Source: Bacteroidetes bacterium GWA2_32_17
GTDB taxonomy: Bacteria; Bacteroidota; Bacteroidia; Bacteroidales; GWA2-32-17
Length of the DNA: 50,508 bases
NCBI GenBank assembly: GCA_001769035.1
Contig: MENF01000145.1
Location: forward strand, 1 to 50,508
Direction of reading: 5' to 3'
Shown in pieces: positions 1 to 50,508 of this stretch (the stretch's first letter is position 1; each line of letters starts with the position of its first letter). A program made the position numbers and the translations under genes. A model generated the notes under the pieces. It was not told where the DNA came from. It saw only the letters and a program-made list of their open reading frames with translations, and ran no database searches.

Positions 1-126
1 TTAACAAGTTTACTAATATTTCTTGCAAATAAAAATGGATTATTATTAACTTAAATACTTGATAATTAATGCGTTTAATACTTTTTAAGGGACGACTATT
101 TATATCTAACACATCAAAATATTATT

Positions 127-996
127 TAGTATTTGTCTATAATGTCAGTGTCTGATTCATAATGTTCGAGTTTGAGGCATGCTTCAAACTCGAACATTAT
201 AGTGATCCCCAGAAAATTAACCTGACCCGAATAAGAAATGACGGTTAATTGCTTATACCATATACCCTTATACCTTATACCCATAAGTTCAGAATTATAA
301 ATATGACATAAATTTACATTTTTCTCGACTTTATAAACAGACACTATTTAGTGTTTGTCCATAATGTCCGATTTACTCACATTTATATTTATTTTTAAAG
401 GTGTTCGTGATACCGATAGCTATCGGCACGCTTCGATAAGTTCACGAATGAAAACAACGAAGTGGTTCGTGGGGACACGAACCACGGAGGAAAAAAATTA
501 GTGTAATTCGTGGCATATTTCTGACTTTATAGACAGACACTATTTAGTGTATGTCCATAAAGTCAGTGTCTGAACTATAATGTTCGAGTTTGAGGCATGC
601 GAAGTTTTGAAAACCAAGGAGTTTACTATAGTAAATGACAACAGACACTATTTAGTGTTTGTCCATAATGTCCGATTTACTCACATTTATATTTATTTTT
701 AAAGGTGTTCGTGATACCGATAGCTATCGGCACGCTTCGATAAGTTCACGAATGAAAACAACGAAGTGGTTCGTGGGGACACGAACCACGGAGGAAAAAA
801 ATTAGTGTAATTCGTGGCATATTTCTGACTTTATAGACAGACACTATTTAGTGTATGTCCATAAAGTCAGTGTCTGAACTATAATGTTCGAGTTTGAGGC
901 ATGCGAAGTTTTGAAAACCAAGGAGTTTACTATAGTAAATGACTGTTTTCAAAACGAGTATAACGAAAAAATCGGACATTATGGACAGACACTATT
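127..996. repeat. Array of five MITE-like TIR units in alternating orientation, each separated by TT (units 127-346, 349-542, 545-650, 653-846, 849-994)
   Basis: Each unit begins TAGT(G/A)T and ends CACTA; junctions all read CACTA-TT-TAGTG. Confidence 0.85.
337..943 (+). repeat. Perfect tandem duplication, period 304 bp
   Basis: 337-639 and 641-943 read identical by eye. Confidence 0.93.
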
Positions 997-1005
997 TAGT
1001 GCACG

Positions 1006-20570: not shown

Positions 20571-20774
20571 ATATTAATTAACTGATGTTACGTAAAAAGT
20601 TTCTCACAATGATTATTTCTCGTACTTCCTTCGTCAGCATAAACTCCGGCGCTAAGTACGCCAAGAAAATTTTTTTTTTTTTTTAAACTTTGCGAACTTA
20701 TAAGTAATTTCAATTAATACACCAATTGCTTTTATATAGCATGACTATAATAAGCACGCAATAAAAAAATCATT

Positions 20775-20838
20775 CACCCCGTTGGATATTCCATTTTTAT
20801 TGCATAACGGCTATTCAACATAATTATCCTACGGGGTA
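20775..20838. repeat. 64-bp hairpin element (ACCCCGTTGGATA ... TATCCTACGGGGT)
   Basis: Inverted arms; homologous (reverse complement) to 47676-47739, also 64 bp. Confidence 0.75.
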
Positions 20839-21004
20839 AATGATTTTTTTTAGCCACTTTTTAACTTTGTGAACTTGGCGACTTTGCGAGACAAATTTTT
20901 TATTTGCGTAACATGAGTTAATTAATAATGAGATAATAACAAAAATATAAACAGATGAAACATCCACGACTAAAAAAGACACACAAGGGAATGATTATAA
21001 ATAA

Positions 21005-21124: not shown

Positions 21125-21796
21125 ATGAAAATTGCAGACATACTTAAAGAAATAATTGAAGGGAACAGCGAATTTGTTAATAACCACAACACTGATTATT
21201 TTGCTGGACACGCTTCACATCAAAACCCTTATATTACATTAGTAAGCTGTGCCGATTCACGCGTACCTGCAAATGCAATTATGCCCAACACAATTAATAA
21301 AATTTTTAAAATTGAAAACATTGGAAATCAAGTGCTTTCATGCGAAGGTTCGGTTGATTACGGAGTTTTGCATTTAAAAACTCCTGTTTTAATGATACTT
21401 GGACATTCCGATTGTGGTGCTATAAAAGCATATTTGAAAGGATTTAACGAAGAAACCTATAACATTAAACGCGAACTCGATTTTTTATTACCCATAATAA
21501 ATAAAACAGCTAATGAATTAAATTTCGAAAAGCAGCTTTCTACAACTATACAGCACAATATTGACTATCAGGTAAATATAGCTTATAAAAAATACCGCGA
21601 TATAGTCAAAAATAAAAAATTAACAATAATTGGAGCATATTACGACTTTAAAAATGAGTTTAATAAAGGATACGGAAGAATTATTATTACAAATGTCAAC
21701 AAAAATAAAGATAAAAATCAAATATTGGATTTGTCAGAATTTAAAGAAGTTAGAAATAATGTTAACAAGATTTATGTTGGCAGACTTATAGAATGA
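21125..21796 (+). CDS. Beta-class carbonic anhydrase
   Basis: 'SCADSRVPANAI', 'ENIGNQV', 'ILGHSDCGAIKAYL' zinc-site motifs. Confidence 0.92.
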   Translation: MKIADILKEIIEGNSEFVNNHNTDYFAGHASHQNPYITLVSCADSRVPANAIMPNTINKIFKIENIGNQVLSCEGSVDYGVLHLKTPVLMILGHSDCGAIKAYLKGFNEETYNIKRELDFLLPIINKTANELNFEKQLSTTIQHNIDYQVNIAYKKYRDIVKNKKLTIIGAYYDFKNEFNKGYGRIIITNVNKNKDKNQILDLSEFKEVRNNVNKIYVGRLIE

Positions 21797-21955
21797 GTAA
21801 ATATTGGCTAAATAATATTTTGATGTGATGGATGATTTTTTTTATGTCCCGATAGGGACAAAATACATGTATTAAGCTTGCCGAACTATTGGTAGAATTA
21901 ATTTTCACCCCAAATAATTGCCACTTCCTTCGTAAGTGTATACTCCTGTACTAAA

Positions 21956-22125
21956 TAGAGTCTGTCTATAAACTCTGTGTCTGATTTATAATGTTCGAGT
22001 TTGAGGCTTGCGAAGTTTTGAAAACCTCATTGCCATTGTTTGTGTCCTCACAAACAATGACGGAATGACCCCGTAGCGAAGCGTACTGGGGCATAACGAA
22101 AATCGGACATTCTAGACAGACACTA
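21956..22125 (-). repeat. MITE-like TIR element, single copy
   Basis: TAGAGTCTGTCTATAAACTC ... GACATTCTAGACAGACACTA, containing CCCCGTAGCGAAGCGTACTGGGG and CATTGTTTGTG-TCCT-CACAAACAATG hairpins. Confidence 0.82.
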
Positions 22126-24366
22126 TTTTGGTAATTGGTTTAAAAAATCGTTATAAACTTTTACAAAATTTTCGAGATGGAGCAGCATGTTTTTGGTTTC
22201 GTGCATAATACCAAGATAAAGTATTGTTGTGCGGGTATTAATTTCGGAATCTTTAATATTTTTAAGTTGCACTTTTCGATGACTATCAATAAACATTACA
22301 ATATTATTTATTCGCTGTTGAATTACTGATATTTCAATGGTTTTATTATTAATTTGTTCAATTACAAATGCGAAAAGTTCTTTAACTTGTTTTTTAATTA
22401 ATTTAAGTTCATCAAATTGCTCCGAAGGAATTGGGTTGTGAACATTATTAACATGAGTAAATGCAGGATTTGTTATATAATTAAGGCAGTATTCTGCTTC
22501 CCTAAGGTAATCGTAAATTTGAATAGAATGTGTTCCTGAAACAAACAGCTCTTTGCTTAAATTTTTAAATGTGTTTATAGCTCTTGTTTTAAATTTTTTA
22601 GTTTGTTTATTCATGTTTGTAACATCTTTAGAAAGTTTTTTTAGCAACTTCCTATTTTCATCTTCAAGAGCATCAATAGTTTCTGAATATATTTCAGGAA
22701 TTTTAGAAATAATTAACATTGATTGCTCATTAGTAAGTTCAGATAATTCTTTAGATGTTTGTGGTAAATAAGCTTCAACTTCTTTTTCAGTATTTTCATT
22801 TTCAATTTTTTTATGCATGATTTTGGTTCTGTACAATAAAACAACAGATAAAATAACCATTGCAATTACGCCAAAAATTCCACCAAAATAAAGAATAAAT
22901 GCAACAATTGCAGCAGCAAAAAATGCTATTAATGCAGTAAAAAACCAACCACTGATAACAGTTAAAACTCCTGTAATTCTGTAAACTGCCGATTCTCGTC
23001 CCCATGCACCATCGGCTAATGAAGTTCCCATAGCAACCATAAACGTAACATAAGTTGTTGATAATGGCAATTTTAGTGAAGTTGCAGATGCGATTAAAAT
23101 ACTTGCTACAACAAGATTTACTGATGCTCTTATTAAGTCGAAAGATGCTTGAGAATCTTCCTCGTTATTGACATTATTATAATTTGGTTTTTCAAATCTT
23201 TTTCCCATAAATGTAAAAACAGCTTTTGGTAAAAAAGCACCTAATCCTTTTTGCATTGTTACAGAACTTTGAACAATTGTTCGAGCCATTATAGATGAAC
23301 CCCAACGTTCATCGCCCTCACCTTGACGACTTAATTGAACTGTTGTTTGAACAACAGTACGAGCTTTTCGTGATAAGAAAATAGTTACAACCATTATTAA
23401 TCCAGCAATAAGTAAAAAATAAATGTCGGTTTGAACATCGCCTTTTAGTCCTATCATATTATATGTATCGGGGTTTTCACCCGATGCTTGCCAAAGTTGA
23501 TACGATTTATATCCTGCCATGGGTGCACCTATAAAATTAACTAAATCGTTTCCTGCAAAGCTCAATGCTAATCCAAAAGTACCAGCGAGCACAACAAGTT
23601 TAAACACGTTTAGTTTAAACAACCAATGAAATAGCTGTAATAATATTGATAAAATAACAAATGACGCAATAACAATTAAAATATTGTTATCAGAAATCCA
23701 GGTTTTTGCTGATTTAGCTATAAATGAAGTGTCATTTAATCCTTTTAACATTATAAATAATAAAATTGCTGTAAGTGCAACACCTCCAAAAATTCCAGAT
23801 GTGTATTTTATGTTTTTTTGATAATTAAATGTATAAATTAATCTAACAATATATTGAACAACTAAACCAACTACAAAAGCAACAACTACCGAAATTAATA
23901 TACCTGAAATAATTGCCAATGCTTTTTCGGTATTAATATAATTTCCTAATTCGCTTACCGAATGATGAGTTTTAATTATTTTAATAATTGATACAGCTAC
24001 TGCGGCACCAAGTAAATCGAAAACAATTGAAACAGTTGTTGAAGTGGGTAATCCAAAAGTATTAAAGAAATCTAATAAAAGCACATCGGCAATCATTACG
24101 GCTAAAAAAATTATTATTATTTCGGAGAATACAAATTGCTCAGGATTAAAAATACCTTTTCGTGCAACTTCCATCATACCTCCCGAAAACAACGAGCCGA
24201 TTATTACTCCAGCCGATGCAATAATAATTATTAATCGGAAAGATGCTGCCTTTGAACCAACTGCAGGACCTAAAAAATTTACTGCATCGTTAGCTACTCC
24301 AACTGTTAAATCAGTAACTGCAAGTAATCCAAGAATAATAATTATTGCTAAAAAATACCACTCCAT
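22123..24366 (-). CDS. Inorganic phosphate transporter, PiT family, with C-terminal PhoU-like helical extension
   Basis: 'TDLTVGVANDAVNFLGPAVGSKAA', 'FAGNDLVNFIGAPMAGY', 'LKLPLSTTYVTFMVAMGTSLADGAWGRESAVYRITGVL'; about 220 aa hydrophilic helical C-terminus. Confidence 0.93.
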   Translation of the reverse strand: MEWYFLAIIIILGLLAVTDLTVGVANDAVNFLGPAVGSKAASFRLIIIIASAGVIIGSLFSGGMMEVARKGIFNPEQFVFSEIIIIFLAVMIADVLLLDFFNTFGLPTSTTVSIVFDLLGAAVAVSIIKIIKTHHSVSELGNYINTEKALAIISGILISVVVAFVVGLVVQYIVRLIYTFNYQKNIKYTSGIFGGVALTAILLFIMLKGLNDTSFIAKSAKTWISDNNILIVIASFVILSILLQLFHWLFKLNVFKLVVLAGTFGLALSFAGNDLVNFIGAPMAGYKSYQLWQASGENPDTYNMIGLKGDVQTDIYFLLIAGLIMVVTIFLSRKARTVVQTTVQLSRQGEGDERWGSSIMARTIVQSSVTMQKGLGAFLPKAVFTFMGKRFEKPNYNNVNNEEDSQASFDLIRASVNLVVASILIASATSLKLPLSTTYVTFMVAMGTSLADGAWGRESAVYRITGVLTVISGWFFTALIAFFAAAIVAFILYFGGIFGVIAMVILSVVLLYRTKIMHKKIENENTEKEVEAYLPQTSKELSELTNEQSMLIISKIPEIYSETIDALEDENRKLLKKLSKDVTNMNKQTKKFKTRAINTFKNLSKELFVSGTHSIQIYDYLREAEYCLNYITNPAFTHVNNVHNPIPSEQFDELKLIKKQVKELFAFVIEQINNKTIEISVIQQRINNIVMFIDSHRKVQLKNIKDSEINTRTTILYLGIMHETKNMLLHLENFVKVYNDFLNQLPK

Positions 24367-33232: not shown

Positions 33233-33462
33233 AAATTTTAAAATTTAGTTTTTATTAAAAATGATTGCAAAGGTAGTAATAATTTTATATTTAATGACAT
33301 CTTTACATAATAAATTTCTAATTCGGTGTTTATCAATTAAATATTGGAATAGTAATTCTTTTTTATTATTGCTTTGAGTGCGTTAAAAATTTACTTTAGT
33401 TAATAAAAACACACATTTATTCTAATATTATTTAATACTGATTAAAGTTGGTTTTATATAAT

Positions 33463-33760
33463 TAGTGTCTGTCCATAATGTCCGATTTTTTCGTTATGCC
33501 CCAGTACGCTTCGCTACGGGGTAAACTTGTTTTGAAAACAGTCATTTACATTCCGCCATTGTTTGTGTCCTCACAAACAAAGCGTGCATATTATATGCTC
33601 AAAAAGAGATTGCAAATCGTTTGTGAAGACACAAACGAAGGCAGTGAGGTTTTCAAAACTTCGCATGTTTACCCTGTAGAATTCCGATTTATCGGAATAT
33701 TCAACAGGGCCTCAAACTCGAACATTATAGTTCAGATACTGACTTTATATACAGACACTA
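33463..33760 (+). repeat. MITE-like TIR element upstream of the type IIG RM gene
   Basis: TAGTGTCTGTCCATAATGTCCGA ... CTGACTTTATATACAGACACTA; flanked by TAATTA on both sides if the termini are GTGTCTG/CAGACAC. Confidence 0.85.
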
Positions 33761-33777
33761 ATTAACAAATTTTTACT

Positions 33778-37518: not shown

Positions 37519-38499
37519 ATGCAAAAACATGATTTTACTTCACTAAACTCCGATTCAGATTTTAAAACTCTCGCATTAAAAACATTTAGCTTTCAAGCAA
37601 AAAATAATTTAGTTTATAAGGAATATCTTAAACTTTTAAATGTCATTCCCGAAAAAGTTGATGATATTAAAAAAATCCCATTTTTACCTGTAACATTTTT
37701 TAAAACTCATAAAATAAAATCGTTTAAAACAAAAGAAAATATTATATTTATAAGTAGTGGAACAACGGGCAACGAAACCTCGAAACACTATGTAAAAGAT
37801 TTAGAAATTTATAAAAAAAGTTTCGAATCGGCTTTTAAATTGTTTTACGGAAACATATCCGATTACTGCATTTTGGCACTATTACCTTCTTATTTGGAAA
37901 GAAATGGTTCTTCGTTAATTTATATGGTTAACGAACTTATTAAACAAAGTGAAAATAATTTGAGCGATTTTTACATTAACAATTTCGATGAACTCAATAA
38001 CAAATTGAAAATTTTATCAAAAAATAAACAGAAAACTATTTTGCTCGGTGTTAGTTTTGCTTTAATGGATTTTTCGGAAAAGTATCCTCAAAAACTTCCT
38101 AATAATTTTATTGTGATGGAAACTGGTGGTATGAAAGGACGAAGAAAAGAAATTACCCGCAATGAATTACATAAAACACTTTGCAATAAATTAGGGGTTA
38201 CTACAATTCATAGCGAATATGGTATGACAGAGTTATTATCGCAGGCATATTCGAAAGAAAATGGGATTTATTATTGTCCCCCGTGGATGAAAGTCATTAT
38301 TCGCGATACTTATGACCCATTCAGTTGTTTGCCAAACGAAAAAACTGGTGGAATAAATATTATTGACCTTGCAAACCAATATTCATGCTCTTTTATCGAA
38401 ACTCAAGATTTAGGGAAAACATATAATGACGGAGGTTTTGAGGTTATGGGCAGGTTTGACAATAGCCAAATTCGTGGTTGTAATATACTTATAAGCTAA
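37519..38499 (+). CDS. LuxE/acyl-protein synthetase-like protein
   Basis: 'IPFLPVTFFKTHKIKSF', 'ISSGTTGNETSKHYV', 'METGGMKGRRKEITRNELH', 'SEYGMTELLSQAYS'. Confidence 0.82.
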   Translation: MQKHDFTSLNSDSDFKTLALKTFSFQAKNNLVYKEYLKLLNVIPEKVDDIKKIPFLPVTFFKTHKIKSFKTKENIIFISSGTTGNETSKHYVKDLEIYKKSFESAFKLFYGNISDYCILALLPSYLERNGSSLIYMVNELIKQSENNLSDFYINNFDELNNKLKILSKNKQKTILLGVSFALMDFSEKYPQKLPNNFIVMETGGMKGRRKEITRNELHKTLCNKLGVTTIHSEYGMTELLSQAYSKENGIYYCPPWMKVIIRDTYDPFSCLPNEKTGGINIIDLANQYSCSFIETQDLGKTYNDGGFEVMGRFDNSQIRGCNILIS

Positions 38500-38500
38500 A

Positions 38501-38822
38501 TAGTGTTTGTCCATAATGTCCGATTTTCGTTATGCCCCAGTACGCTTCGCTACGGGGTCATTCCGTCATTGTTTGTGAGGACACAAACAATGGCAGTGAG
38601 GTTTTCAAAACTTCGCAAGCCTCAAATCCGATAGCTATCGGATCGAACATTACTCACATTTATATTGTTTTTTAAGGTGTTTGCCCTGTTAGATAGTTTA
38701 AAAAAAGAGCGAACAATAAAAGAACAATTATCTAACAGGGAGAATGAGATCGCGGAGTTTACACTGATCTTTGCGAATGTTCTAAGTTCTGAATCAAACA
38801 CTGACTTTATAGACAGACTCTA
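38501..38822 (+). repeat. MITE-like TIR element downstream of the LuxE-like gene, same orientation as the 33463 copy
   Basis: TAGTGTTTGTCCATAATGTCCGATTTTCGTTATGCCCCAGTACG ... CTGACTTTATAGACAGACTCTA. Confidence 0.84.
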
Positions 38823-38823
38823 A

Positions 38824-39912
38824 CTAATACCATTTATAAATTTTTAAACCTGTAAGAAAAACAATTAGTCCACTTGTAAATAAAATAACAATTGGTACAA
38901 TTACTTCATTTAGCCCTGCACCTTCGTTAATAACACTTCGTAAACTATCAGTAAAAAGGGTTAACGGTAAATATTTTATTATTTGTATTGCAAAATCCGG
39001 AAAATGATTATAACTAAAAAAAATACCCGAAAGTAACATCATAGGCATTGTAAATAAATTAACTAGTCCATTGCCAACCTGAGTATTTGATGTTCGTGAA
39101 GCTAAAAGAATAGCCAACCCCATAAAGAAAAAACAACCACTAATTAAAATTCCTGCAAATGCGAACATACTACCCTGAATTGTAATTCCAAAAACAATAC
39201 GGGCAAAAACAAGCAATACAACTACTTCGAGTATAGAAAAAGTAAAACGTGATAAAAACATTGTAAACATAAAAAGCGATTTTTTCATTGGAGTTGCAAC
39301 AATTCTTCGTAAAAGTTTTTTTGAACGTTTGCTAATTAAACTATAACTAATTCCCCACAAGCTGGAGCTCATTATTCCCATTGCTAACAAACCTGGCACT
39401 AAAAAATCAATATAACGCATACCTTTGGCTTCTAATGGTTTAATTATAGAATTGTCAGAAATTAATTTTTTATTGTCTATTGTTCCCGAAATTAAAATGT
39501 ATGCTAATCGTGATGATGCATTTGCAGGGTCGAAATAATAATTTACTTTTTTATTTTCTTCGGATATTATTATTTCTATTTGTCCTCGCTTCATCATTAA
39601 TTCACTTTCAGTTTTTGTAACAACTTGAAAATTAGAAATAGTTTTTCCGATATTATCGTTATTATTTATTATTTGATATTTATTTTTTAGTTTAGTGCAA
39701 TTTGTTTTAAGAAAATTTTTAAGAATTGAGTTTTCATTGTTTTGGGGTAAAATAACTGCAGCATTTTGCACTATTTCGGGTTTATCGGAAAAAGCCATTC
39801 CTAATGCAAGCGACATTAATATTGGAAAAATAAATGACCAAAATAATGCTCCGGGTTCACGAAAAAACTCTTTAAACTGAATTGATAAAAGTTGTGTGAA
39901 TTGCTTAATCAT
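38824..39912 (-). CDS. ABC transporter permease (ABC-2 type)
   Basis: 'FFREPGALFWSFIFPILMSLALG' and C-terminal TM block; adjacent to ATPase gene. Confidence 0.9.
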   Translation of the reverse strand: MIKQFTQLLSIQFKEFFREPGALFWSFIFPILMSLALGMAFSDKPEIVQNAAVILPQNNENSILKNFLKTNCTKLKNKYQIINNNDNIGKTISNFQVVTKTESELMMKRGQIEIIISEENKKVNYYFDPANASSRLAYILISGTIDNKKLISDNSIIKPLEAKGMRYIDFLVPGLLAMGIMSSSLWGISYSLISKRSKKLLRRIVATPMKKSLFMFTMFLSRFTFSILEVVVLLVFARIVFGITIQGSMFAFAGILISGCFFFMGLAILLASRTSNTQVGNGLVNLFTMPMMLLSGIFFSYNHFPDFAIQIIKYLPLTLFTDSLRSVINEGAGLNEVIVPIVILFTSGLIVFLTGLKIYKWY

Positions 39913-47519: not shown

Positions 47520-47614
47520 TTAAAAGCTCCACTATTCAGGCTGTCTAAAAACCTTATTTGTAACTATTCAGTATGCGTAAAAATTGTCACGCAAAGTCGC
47601 AAAGTTCGCAATTT

Positions 47615-47739
47615 ACCCCGTTAGATAATTGCTCTTTAAAATAGTTCACTCTTTTTTTAACTATCTCACGGGGTGAACCCCGTTATATAATTCCTATAGA
47701 AATGTGGTATGAAAATAAAAATTGGTATCCAACGGGGTT
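47615..47739. repeat. Two adjacent hairpin elements, 47615-47674 and 47676-47739
   Basis: ACCCCGTTAGATA...ACTATCTCACGGGGT and AACCCCGTT...AACGGGGTT. Confidence 0.75.
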
Positions 47740-48147
47740 AATATAGAAAATTATAATAAGTAAAAAGAAAAAATGACTATGAGATTTTATGGTTTGAATA
47801 GTAAACACGCTGTAAGCACGCAATGAAAAAAATCATTAATGATTTTTTTTAACTTTGCGTGCTTAAAACTTTGCGGGCATTGCGAGCTTTGCGTGACATA
47901 ATATTTGAGAGAAGAACTTGTATGTTAAATAAAAAATCAAATTAACTTTGACTCTGATTAGTTACCCTTATTTTTATCAAATATTGTTTTTGTAACATCT
48001 TATAAACATGTATATTTGAAAAATGATTTAAGGTGGGTTCTAAAAATTAATAATTTCGTCATGGCAGGCTGTCATCTTGAGCTTGTCGAAAGACTGCCGT
48101 CTCTTCACTCCAATTTTAAAGGAGATTATTCGCTATCGCATAGTAGC

Positions 48148-50357: not shown

Positions 50358-50383
50358 CGACTTACATATACTTAAAACGGTAA

Positions 50384-50508
50384 AAATTGGACATTATGGA
50401 CAAACACTATTTAGTGCCTGTCCATAAAGTCAAGAGTCTGAAATATAAAGTTCGATAACAAGGCTTGCGAAGTTTTGAAAACCTCACTGCCATTGTTTGT
50501 GTCCTCAC
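50384..50508 (-). repeat. Remnant plus start of further MITE-like copies, cut by the window end
   Basis: ATTGGACATTATGGACAAACACTA-TT-TAGTGCCTGTCCATAAAGTC...GCGAAGTTTTGAAAACCTCACTGCCATTGTTTGTGTCCTCAC. Confidence 0.8.

What the first reader, a model, noticed from the sequence alone, without database searches (positions are those of the whole stretch)
20751..20852. Filled versus empty site for a 64-bp hairpin element
20751-20774 TAAGCACGCAATAAAAAAATCATT + [64 bp 20775-20838] + 20839-20852 AATGATTTTTTTTA. At 47813-47851 the same flanks are joined directly: TAAGCACGCAATGAAAAAAATCATT|AATGATTTTTTTTA. The insert lies exactly at the centre of an ATCATT/AATGAT hairpin, so a hairpin has been placed at the tip of another hairpin. 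A homologous 64-bp element sits at 47676-47739.
Basis: seen in the sequence. Interest (0 to 1): 0.75.

Follow-up and report, generated by a model that had tools for sequence, protein, structure and literature searches.

The report
Mobile 64-bp hairpin nested in hairpins
The 64-base insert is real: it is one copy of a small non-coding mobile hairpin that occurs dozens to hundreds of times in some bacterial genomes across many phyla, lands between short flanks by swapping four bases for a longer hairpin, and here sits at the tip of a hairpin that itself lies inside a larger mobile element.

Summary
The insert at 20775-20838 belongs to a dispersed hairpin family ("E"): a core of about 60 bp, CCCCGTTRGATA-(about 36 nt)-TATCYAACGGGG. 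The window's genome has 162 half-sites against 13 for the reversed control pattern. In about 0.96 Mb of this genome, 52 of 64 E copies give a BLAST hit to an insert-free counterpart; where the match is clean, a 4-mer in the empty site becomes 4-mer+core+4-mer. A 60-bp core thus adds 64 bp. The two 4-mers usually differ, so there is no target duplication, and slippage between arms does not explain it.

They share a hairpin module whose tip takes E. A closer empty copy of the 20.7-kb element exists on another contig.

Hairpin tips are enriched among distinct contexts (4 of 79 versus 0.09 expected) but are a minority, so "always at loop centres" fails.

The same ends recur in Bacteroidota, Cloacimonadota, Armatimonadota, Nitrospinota, Patescibacteria and others; within the genus, two of five genomes are rich and three at background. 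No cognate transposase was identified. Best reading: a REP/MITE-like non-autonomous hairpin transposon of an apparently undescribed family, possibly moved as single-stranded DNA.

The parts
20582..20917 (+). Outer mosaic MITE 'M2' (336 bp): inverted ends CTGATGTTACGT / GCGTAACATGAG; 8-bp direct repeat TTAATTAA on both sides (20574-20581, 20918-20925)
   Evidence: 16 places with related ends; four others have a perfect 8-bp repeat and several a 7-bp repeat by eye
20763..20772 (+). Left arm AAAAAAATCA of the host hairpin
   Evidence: pairs with 20841-20850
20773..20776 (+). L4 = TTCA, 4-nt left junction of the insert
   Evidence: empty relatives carry one 4-mer (TTAA or TAAA) here instead of L4+core+R4
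20777..20836 (+). E core (subfamily E1), 60 bp: CCCCGTTGGATA-N36-TATCCTACGGGG
20837..20840 (+). R4 = TAAA, 4-nt right junction
   Evidence: equals the 4-mer of the nearest empty copy at C161:5834 (CA-TAAA-TG)
20841..20850 (+). Right arm TGATTTTTTT of the host hairpin
47560..47965 (+). Outer MITE 'M' (406 bp): ends GTAACTATTCAG / CTGATTAGTTAC with 8-bp target duplication CCTTATTT (47552-47559, 47966-47973)
   Evidence: 24 copies, 18 with a perfect 8-bp duplication; a copy at C150:54551-54894 is absent from the orthologous spacer in a congener
47616..47673 (+). E copy (E5-type core, 58 bp), L4 TTTA at 47612-47615
   Evidence: empty counterparts with X4 = TTCA (9), TTTA (2), TTAA (1)
47674..47677 (+). 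Shared 4-mer TGAA between two abutting E cores (...GGGG-TGAA-CCCC...)
47678..47737 (-).
47813..47862 (+). Empty host hairpin TAAGCACGCAATGAAAAAAATCA-TTAA-TGATTTTTTTTAACTTTGCGTGC (X4 TTAA at 47836-47839)
   Evidence: DNA fold z = -8.0; about 40 genome copies

Best explanation
The insert is a copy of a non-autonomous mobile hairpin ('E'). SHOWN: E is dispersed at many sites. Where an empty counterpart matches cleanly, insertion replaces one 4-mer by L4 + core (mostly 57-62 bp here) + R4, so a 60-bp core adds 64 bp. The ends CCCCGTTRGATA and the length are conserved and the roughly 36-nt interior is variable. L4 is typically TTYA and R4 typically TRAA. In several contexts exactly one of L4/R4 equals the empty 4-mer, and in no own-genome context are both equal to it. 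E occurs at tips of host hairpins, inside MITEs, beside or inside other E copies and inside coding ends. INFERRED: E is moved in trans by an enzyme that acts on the folded single strand, as IS200/IS605-type and REP-processing HUH/Y1 transposases do. It would join the hairpin next to a target tetranucleotide while carrying a second tetranucleotide with it. That would account for a hairpin flanked by 4-nt junctions, the lack of target duplication in this genome, and the over-representation of hairpin tips. The nested layout (MITE, hairpin module, E) would follow from successive insertions into spacer DNA.
For: 162 half-sites versus 13 control. 52 of 64 copies have a BLAST hit spanning an insert-free junction in the same genome; 4-mer exchange in the subset with a clean pattern match. 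One side equals the empty 4-mer at ATTA_CGCAAAG (TTCA), GGCG_GAACGC (CAGG) and C201:25999 (TAAA). Element length counted with its outer A and T is mostly 60-69 bp, mode 62. Same ends in at least 10 phyla with different interiors. Patchy: 10 of 295 genomes of the order including the window's own, and only the window's own among 398 drawn from the phylum; in the genus, two genomes with 162 and 407 half-sites and three at control level. Outer palindromes 4/79 contexts versus 0.09 expected. E interrupts the end of a reverse-transcriptase-like ORF in L225 and lies inside another E in L159. Y1 genes were found in all eight E-bearing genomes searched for them. Precedent: REP dimers inserted in palindromes (PMC3733652) and tetranucleotide-directed hairpin processing (PMC6006769).
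Against: No E lies within 1.4 kb of any of the 13 Y1 matches in this genome. Elsewhere three of 30 Y1 loci have an E-like hairpin within about 500 bp, against roughly one expected from the E densities (my estimate). The E-rich congener has a single Y1 match, with a stop inside. The REP signature GTAG is absent. In other genomes direct 4-mers (TSD-like) exceed expectation, 19 versus 6.7, which a pure Y1 scheme does not predict. In some contexts neither L4 nor R4 equals the empty 4-mer (GGCA to TTTA..TGAA; CCAA to TTTA..CAGG). 12 of 64 copies gave no spanning hit, and some of the 52 hits are weak. Filled hairpin sites may partly be one event spread by recombination.
Confidence: 0.5

Rival explanations
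1. E is a classical MITE of an unseen DDE transposon with a 4-bp target site; the unequal 4-mers arose later by palindrome correction or mutation.
For: 16-bp inverted ends, no coding capacity, and direct 4-mers (TAAA/TAAA, TGAA/TGAA, TCAA/TCAA, TTAA/TTAA, TATA/TATA) in 19 of 63 foreign contexts versus 6.7 expected, maximum 14 in 2000 shuffles. The ends TTYA-CCCC..AGATA recall piggyBac (TTAA-CCCTAGAAAGATA), from memory only.
Against: In this genome the two 4-mers of a site are almost never equal and the empty 4-mer matches at most one. The IS1380 DDE family PF13701, the prokaryotic relative of piggyBac by my own knowledge, gave no match in this genome, in the E-rich congener or in the E-rich Cloacimonadota genome. 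Pairs of lone E ends 0.3-5 kb apart were few, and the one read (L219) holds a nested repeat, not a transposase.
Confidence: 0.22
2. E moves by a tyrosine-recombinase scheme with a 4-nt coupling sequence (as Tn916): one junction comes from the donor, one from the target, with mismatch repair giving the other combinations.
For: It covers all three junction classes: one side = target, both sides different, both sides equal.
Against: Known overlaps are 5-8 bp (own knowledge); no integrase was found or specifically sought beside E.
Confidence: 0.12
3. No dedicated transposition: E copies spread only by homologous recombination or replication template switching between the repeated flanks (TTTGCG repeats, MITE copies).
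For: Host flanks are themselves repeats; hybrid arms at C136, C150:2157 and C157 suggest recombination between hairpins.
Against: E occurs in many unrelated contexts and genera, inside coding ends and inside another E, with net gain of core + 4 bp.
Confidence: 0.12
4. The short form is derived by deletion of E from the hairpin.
For: Deletion of a hairpin is mechanistically easy.
Against: 45 empty against 13 filled hairpins in the sequence read, the same E in unrelated places, and near absence of E from three of five congeners.
Confidence: 0.04

Closest known systems
REP elements / RAYT (TnpA-REP) system, including REPs inserted in palindromes (PMC3733652) and the 'atypical secondary structures' of Bacteroidetes Y1 subclass 2.6 (PMC6006769)
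   Same: Short non-coding extragenic hairpins in tens to hundreds of copies, singles and abutting pairs, a 4-nt motif at the foot, insertion into palindromes reported
   Different: No GTAG/CGTC tag, TTYA instead; long variable interior; Y1 gene not flanked by E in this genome; same ends across many phyla
TIR repeats of TIRYT genes (PMC3733652)
   Same: Repeats linked to Y1 transposases, some self-complementary, some with a GGGGWSAS motif; E ends in GGGGTRAA
   Different: No TIRtron-like Y1 locus was demonstrated here; motif match is partial
MITEs (such as the outer elements M and M2 here)
   Same: Inverted ends, no genes, many copies
   Different: M has perfect 8-bp target duplications in 18 of 24 copies; E shows none in this genome
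Double-hairpin elements / GC clusters of mitochondrial genomes (PMC7218506, PMC5910586, PMC4478555; known here from search listings and own knowledge)
   Same: Tiny palindromic mobile repeats
   Different: Organellar; no shared sequence shown

Membership tests
REP/RAYT element | GT[AG]G (or CGTC) tetranucleotide at the hairpin foot | tested here: not met
   L4 is TTYA or variants; no GTAG
REP/RAYT element | Y1 transposase gene flanked by the element | tested here: not met
   0 of 13 Y1 matches in the own genome; 3 of 30 elsewhere, about one expected
REP/RAYT element | High-copy extragenic palindrome | tested here: met
   the window copies lie in gene spacers
MITE (DDE) | Inverted terminal repeats, non-coding, uniform length | tested here: met
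MITE (DDE) | Target site duplication | tested here: inconclusive
   absent in the own genome, direct 4-mers enriched in other genomes
MITE (DDE) | Autonomous element with the same ends | tested here: inconclusive
   none identified in the loci examined; whole genomes not read
IS200/IS605-type single-strand insertion | Insertion 3' of a target tetranucleotide, second tetranucleotide carried by the element, no duplication | tested here: inconclusive
   fits some contexts (L4 or R4 = empty 4-mer), not all
IS200/IS605-type single-strand insertion | ssDNA circle intermediate, strand bias | not testable with these tools
   needs laboratory work; the assembly is in 234 contigs
Known RNA family | Rfam match | tested here: not met
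   0 matches in the window

The most novel reading that the evidence does not exclude
E is an undescribed, cross-phylum hairpin transposon family with its own insertion chemistry: a palindrome enters at a 4-nt target, the 4-mer is exchanged for two dissimilar 4-mers, hairpin tips are preferred, and the enzyme is unknown.
Probability: 0.3. Interest if true: 0.8.

Novelty: new variant of a known kind. Interest (0 to 1): 0.58.

Why it matters
A repeat whose 12-bp ends and length are kept across Bacteroidota, Cloacimonadota, Armatimonadota, Nitrospinota and Patescibacteria while its interior varies points to one recognising enzyme or a recurrently transferred element. The many filled/empty pairs in a single genome make the junction rule of a small palindromic repeat directly readable, a question still open for REPs. 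The nested layers record the order of insertions.

Tried and rejected
Y1 transposase as neighbour: no clear association. IS1380/piggyBac-like DDE: no match in the E-rich genomes. Autonomous copy with the same ends: the one candidate read, L219:707-1428, holds a nested repeat and no transposase. Recurrent neighbour gene: no transposase emerged. Phage carriage: 0 IMG/VR contigs; plasmids: no match for E1. Rfam: none. Published sequence: no paper listed that is evidently about this repeat (only titles and abstract starts were seen). Interior captured from elsewhere in the genome: only four 16-nt matches outside E. Orthologous comparison around 21125-21796: gene not found in congeners.

Full report
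OBSERVATION. The filled site (20751-20852) and the joined form (47813-47851) are exactly as described, and both fold strongly as single strands.

THE INSERT FAMILY. The insert has a core CCCCGTTGGATA-N36-TATCCTACGGGG at 20777-20836. The half-site ACCCCGTTNGATA with one mismatch occurs 162 times in the 4.77-Mb genome, against 13 for the reversed pattern. Subfamilies share ends and length (mode 62 bp counted from the outer A to the outer T). Of the interiors compared, E1, E4 and E7 are weakly related, as are E3 and E5; most other pairs are no better than shuffles. Two E copies abut at 47616-47673 and 47678-47737 with a single shared 4-mer.

EMPTY SITES. I read about 0.96 Mb of this genome and searched joined flanks against it. 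52 of 64 E copies gave a hit spanning the junction without E. Some of these hits are weak or run between different repeats, so I looked separately for sites with 14-nt flanks matching and a short gap. Where such sites exist the gap is almost always 4 nt, so the net gain is core + 4 bp (64 for a 60-bp core; cores of 57-62 bp occur). The empty 4-mer may equal L4 (TTCA in ATTA_CGCAAAG), R4 (CAGG; TAAA at C201) or neither (GGCA, CCAA). For the window site the nearest empty copy, C161:5834, has TAAA, which is R4; TTAA is the commonest empty form in looser matches. In no own-genome context do both equal the empty 4-mer. In 63 distinct contexts from other genomes, equal (direct) 4-mers number 19 against 6.7 expected, so a duplication-type history is not excluded there.

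HAIRPIN TIPS. In the sequence read, the host hairpin is found 45 times empty (TTAA 27, TTTA 11, TAAA 7) and 13 times filled, one mismatch per arm allowed. E1 lies in one orientation in most filled sites and in the opposite one at C227. Over 79 deduplicated contexts from all genomes, 4 have six of six outer pairs against 0.09 expected. L150 (CCCAGCCA/TGGCTGGG) and L162 (GCCCAA/TTGGGC) are clear cases from other genomes. So tips are favoured, or at least tolerated and retained, but most insertions are elsewhere. The filled copies are not all independent.

OUTER LAYERS. The two flanks sit in two MITEs. M (window 47560-47965) has ends GTAACTAWTCAG and a perfect 8-bp duplication in 18 of 24 copies. 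Its lengths cluster near 280, 344 and 407 bp, which fits none, one or two E insertions; this was checked only for some copies. M2 (20582-20917) has ends CTSATGTTACG and here an 8-bp repeat TTAATTAA. At C150:54551-54894 an M copy carrying one E and the empty hairpin lies between two ORFs; in a congener contig (L396) the same two ORFs are nearly adjacent, an orthologous empty site for the whole block.

DISTRIBUTION. Many are MAGs, so single bins may be contaminated; abundant copies in several phyla make contamination an unlikely general answer. It was not found in IMG/VR, and E1 has no match in plasmids. In the order, 10 of 295 genomes match, the window's own included; in a phylum draw, only the window's own of 398. 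In the genus, two of five genomes are rich and three are at control level. G695, the rich congener, has the same counts as G295, and contig lengths agree with CG23_combo_of_CG06-09_8_20_14_all_32_9; I infer they are one genome.

MECHANISM. Shown: gain of core + 4, unequal junction 4-mers in this genome, conserved ends, nested insertions. Inferred: movement in trans on folded single-stranded DNA. The class of enzyme is open. Y1 genes were found in all eight E-bearing genomes searched for them, but E does not flank them in this one; PF13701 DDE is missing from the richest genomes.

KNOWN RELATIVES. REP dimers inserted in palindromes are on record (PMC3733652), so hairpin-in-hairpin nesting has precedent. 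Bacteroidetes Y1 subclass 2.6 is flanked by 'atypical secondary structures' whose sequences I could not compare (PMC6006769). I did not find E described, but most subscription papers are not held. Novelty is therefore provisional.

Noticed in passing
window 47560-47965 and G000:C150:54551-54894: MITE M with ends GTAACTAWTCAG and 8-bp target duplications (18 of 24 perfect); GTAA ends and 8 bp recall IS66 (own knowledge, untested).
   Followed up: partly
window 20582-20917: Mosaic MITE M2 with ends CTSATGTTACG and 7-8 bp direct repeats, holding A/T-flanked hairpin modules.
   Followed up: partly
L145, L177 (end of ORF) and L225:3461: E hairpins inside the 3' ends of reverse-transcriptase-like ORFs; in L225 it appears to interrupt the C-terminal motif. 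RT type (DGR, group II) named by eye.
   Followed up: partly
L309:890-1660: Y1 transposase ORF with two tandem E-like hairpins upstream and a short CCCCGT..ACGGGG hairpin downstream (Cloacimonadota); a possible REPtron-like locus.
   Followed up: partly
L159:6869-6929: E inserted inside the interior of another E (E4 type), empty 4-mer TGAA by comparison with E4 copies.
   Followed up: partly
window 121-1000, 21950-22140, 33458-33765, 38484-38830, 50380-50508: Another dispersed repeat family (GACAGACACTATTTAGTGTTTGTCC...) in several copies and both orientations; a 300-bp tandem duplication at 336-939.
   Followed up: no
window 4139, 15097, 38622: Short palindrome ATCCGATAGCTATCGGAT at three places.
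   Followed up: no
G000:C136:6421-6661, C216:7860-8099, C28:2377-2594: Short M2 copies with the left arm of one hairpin and the right arm of the other around one E: looks like recombination between two E copies.
   Followed up: partly
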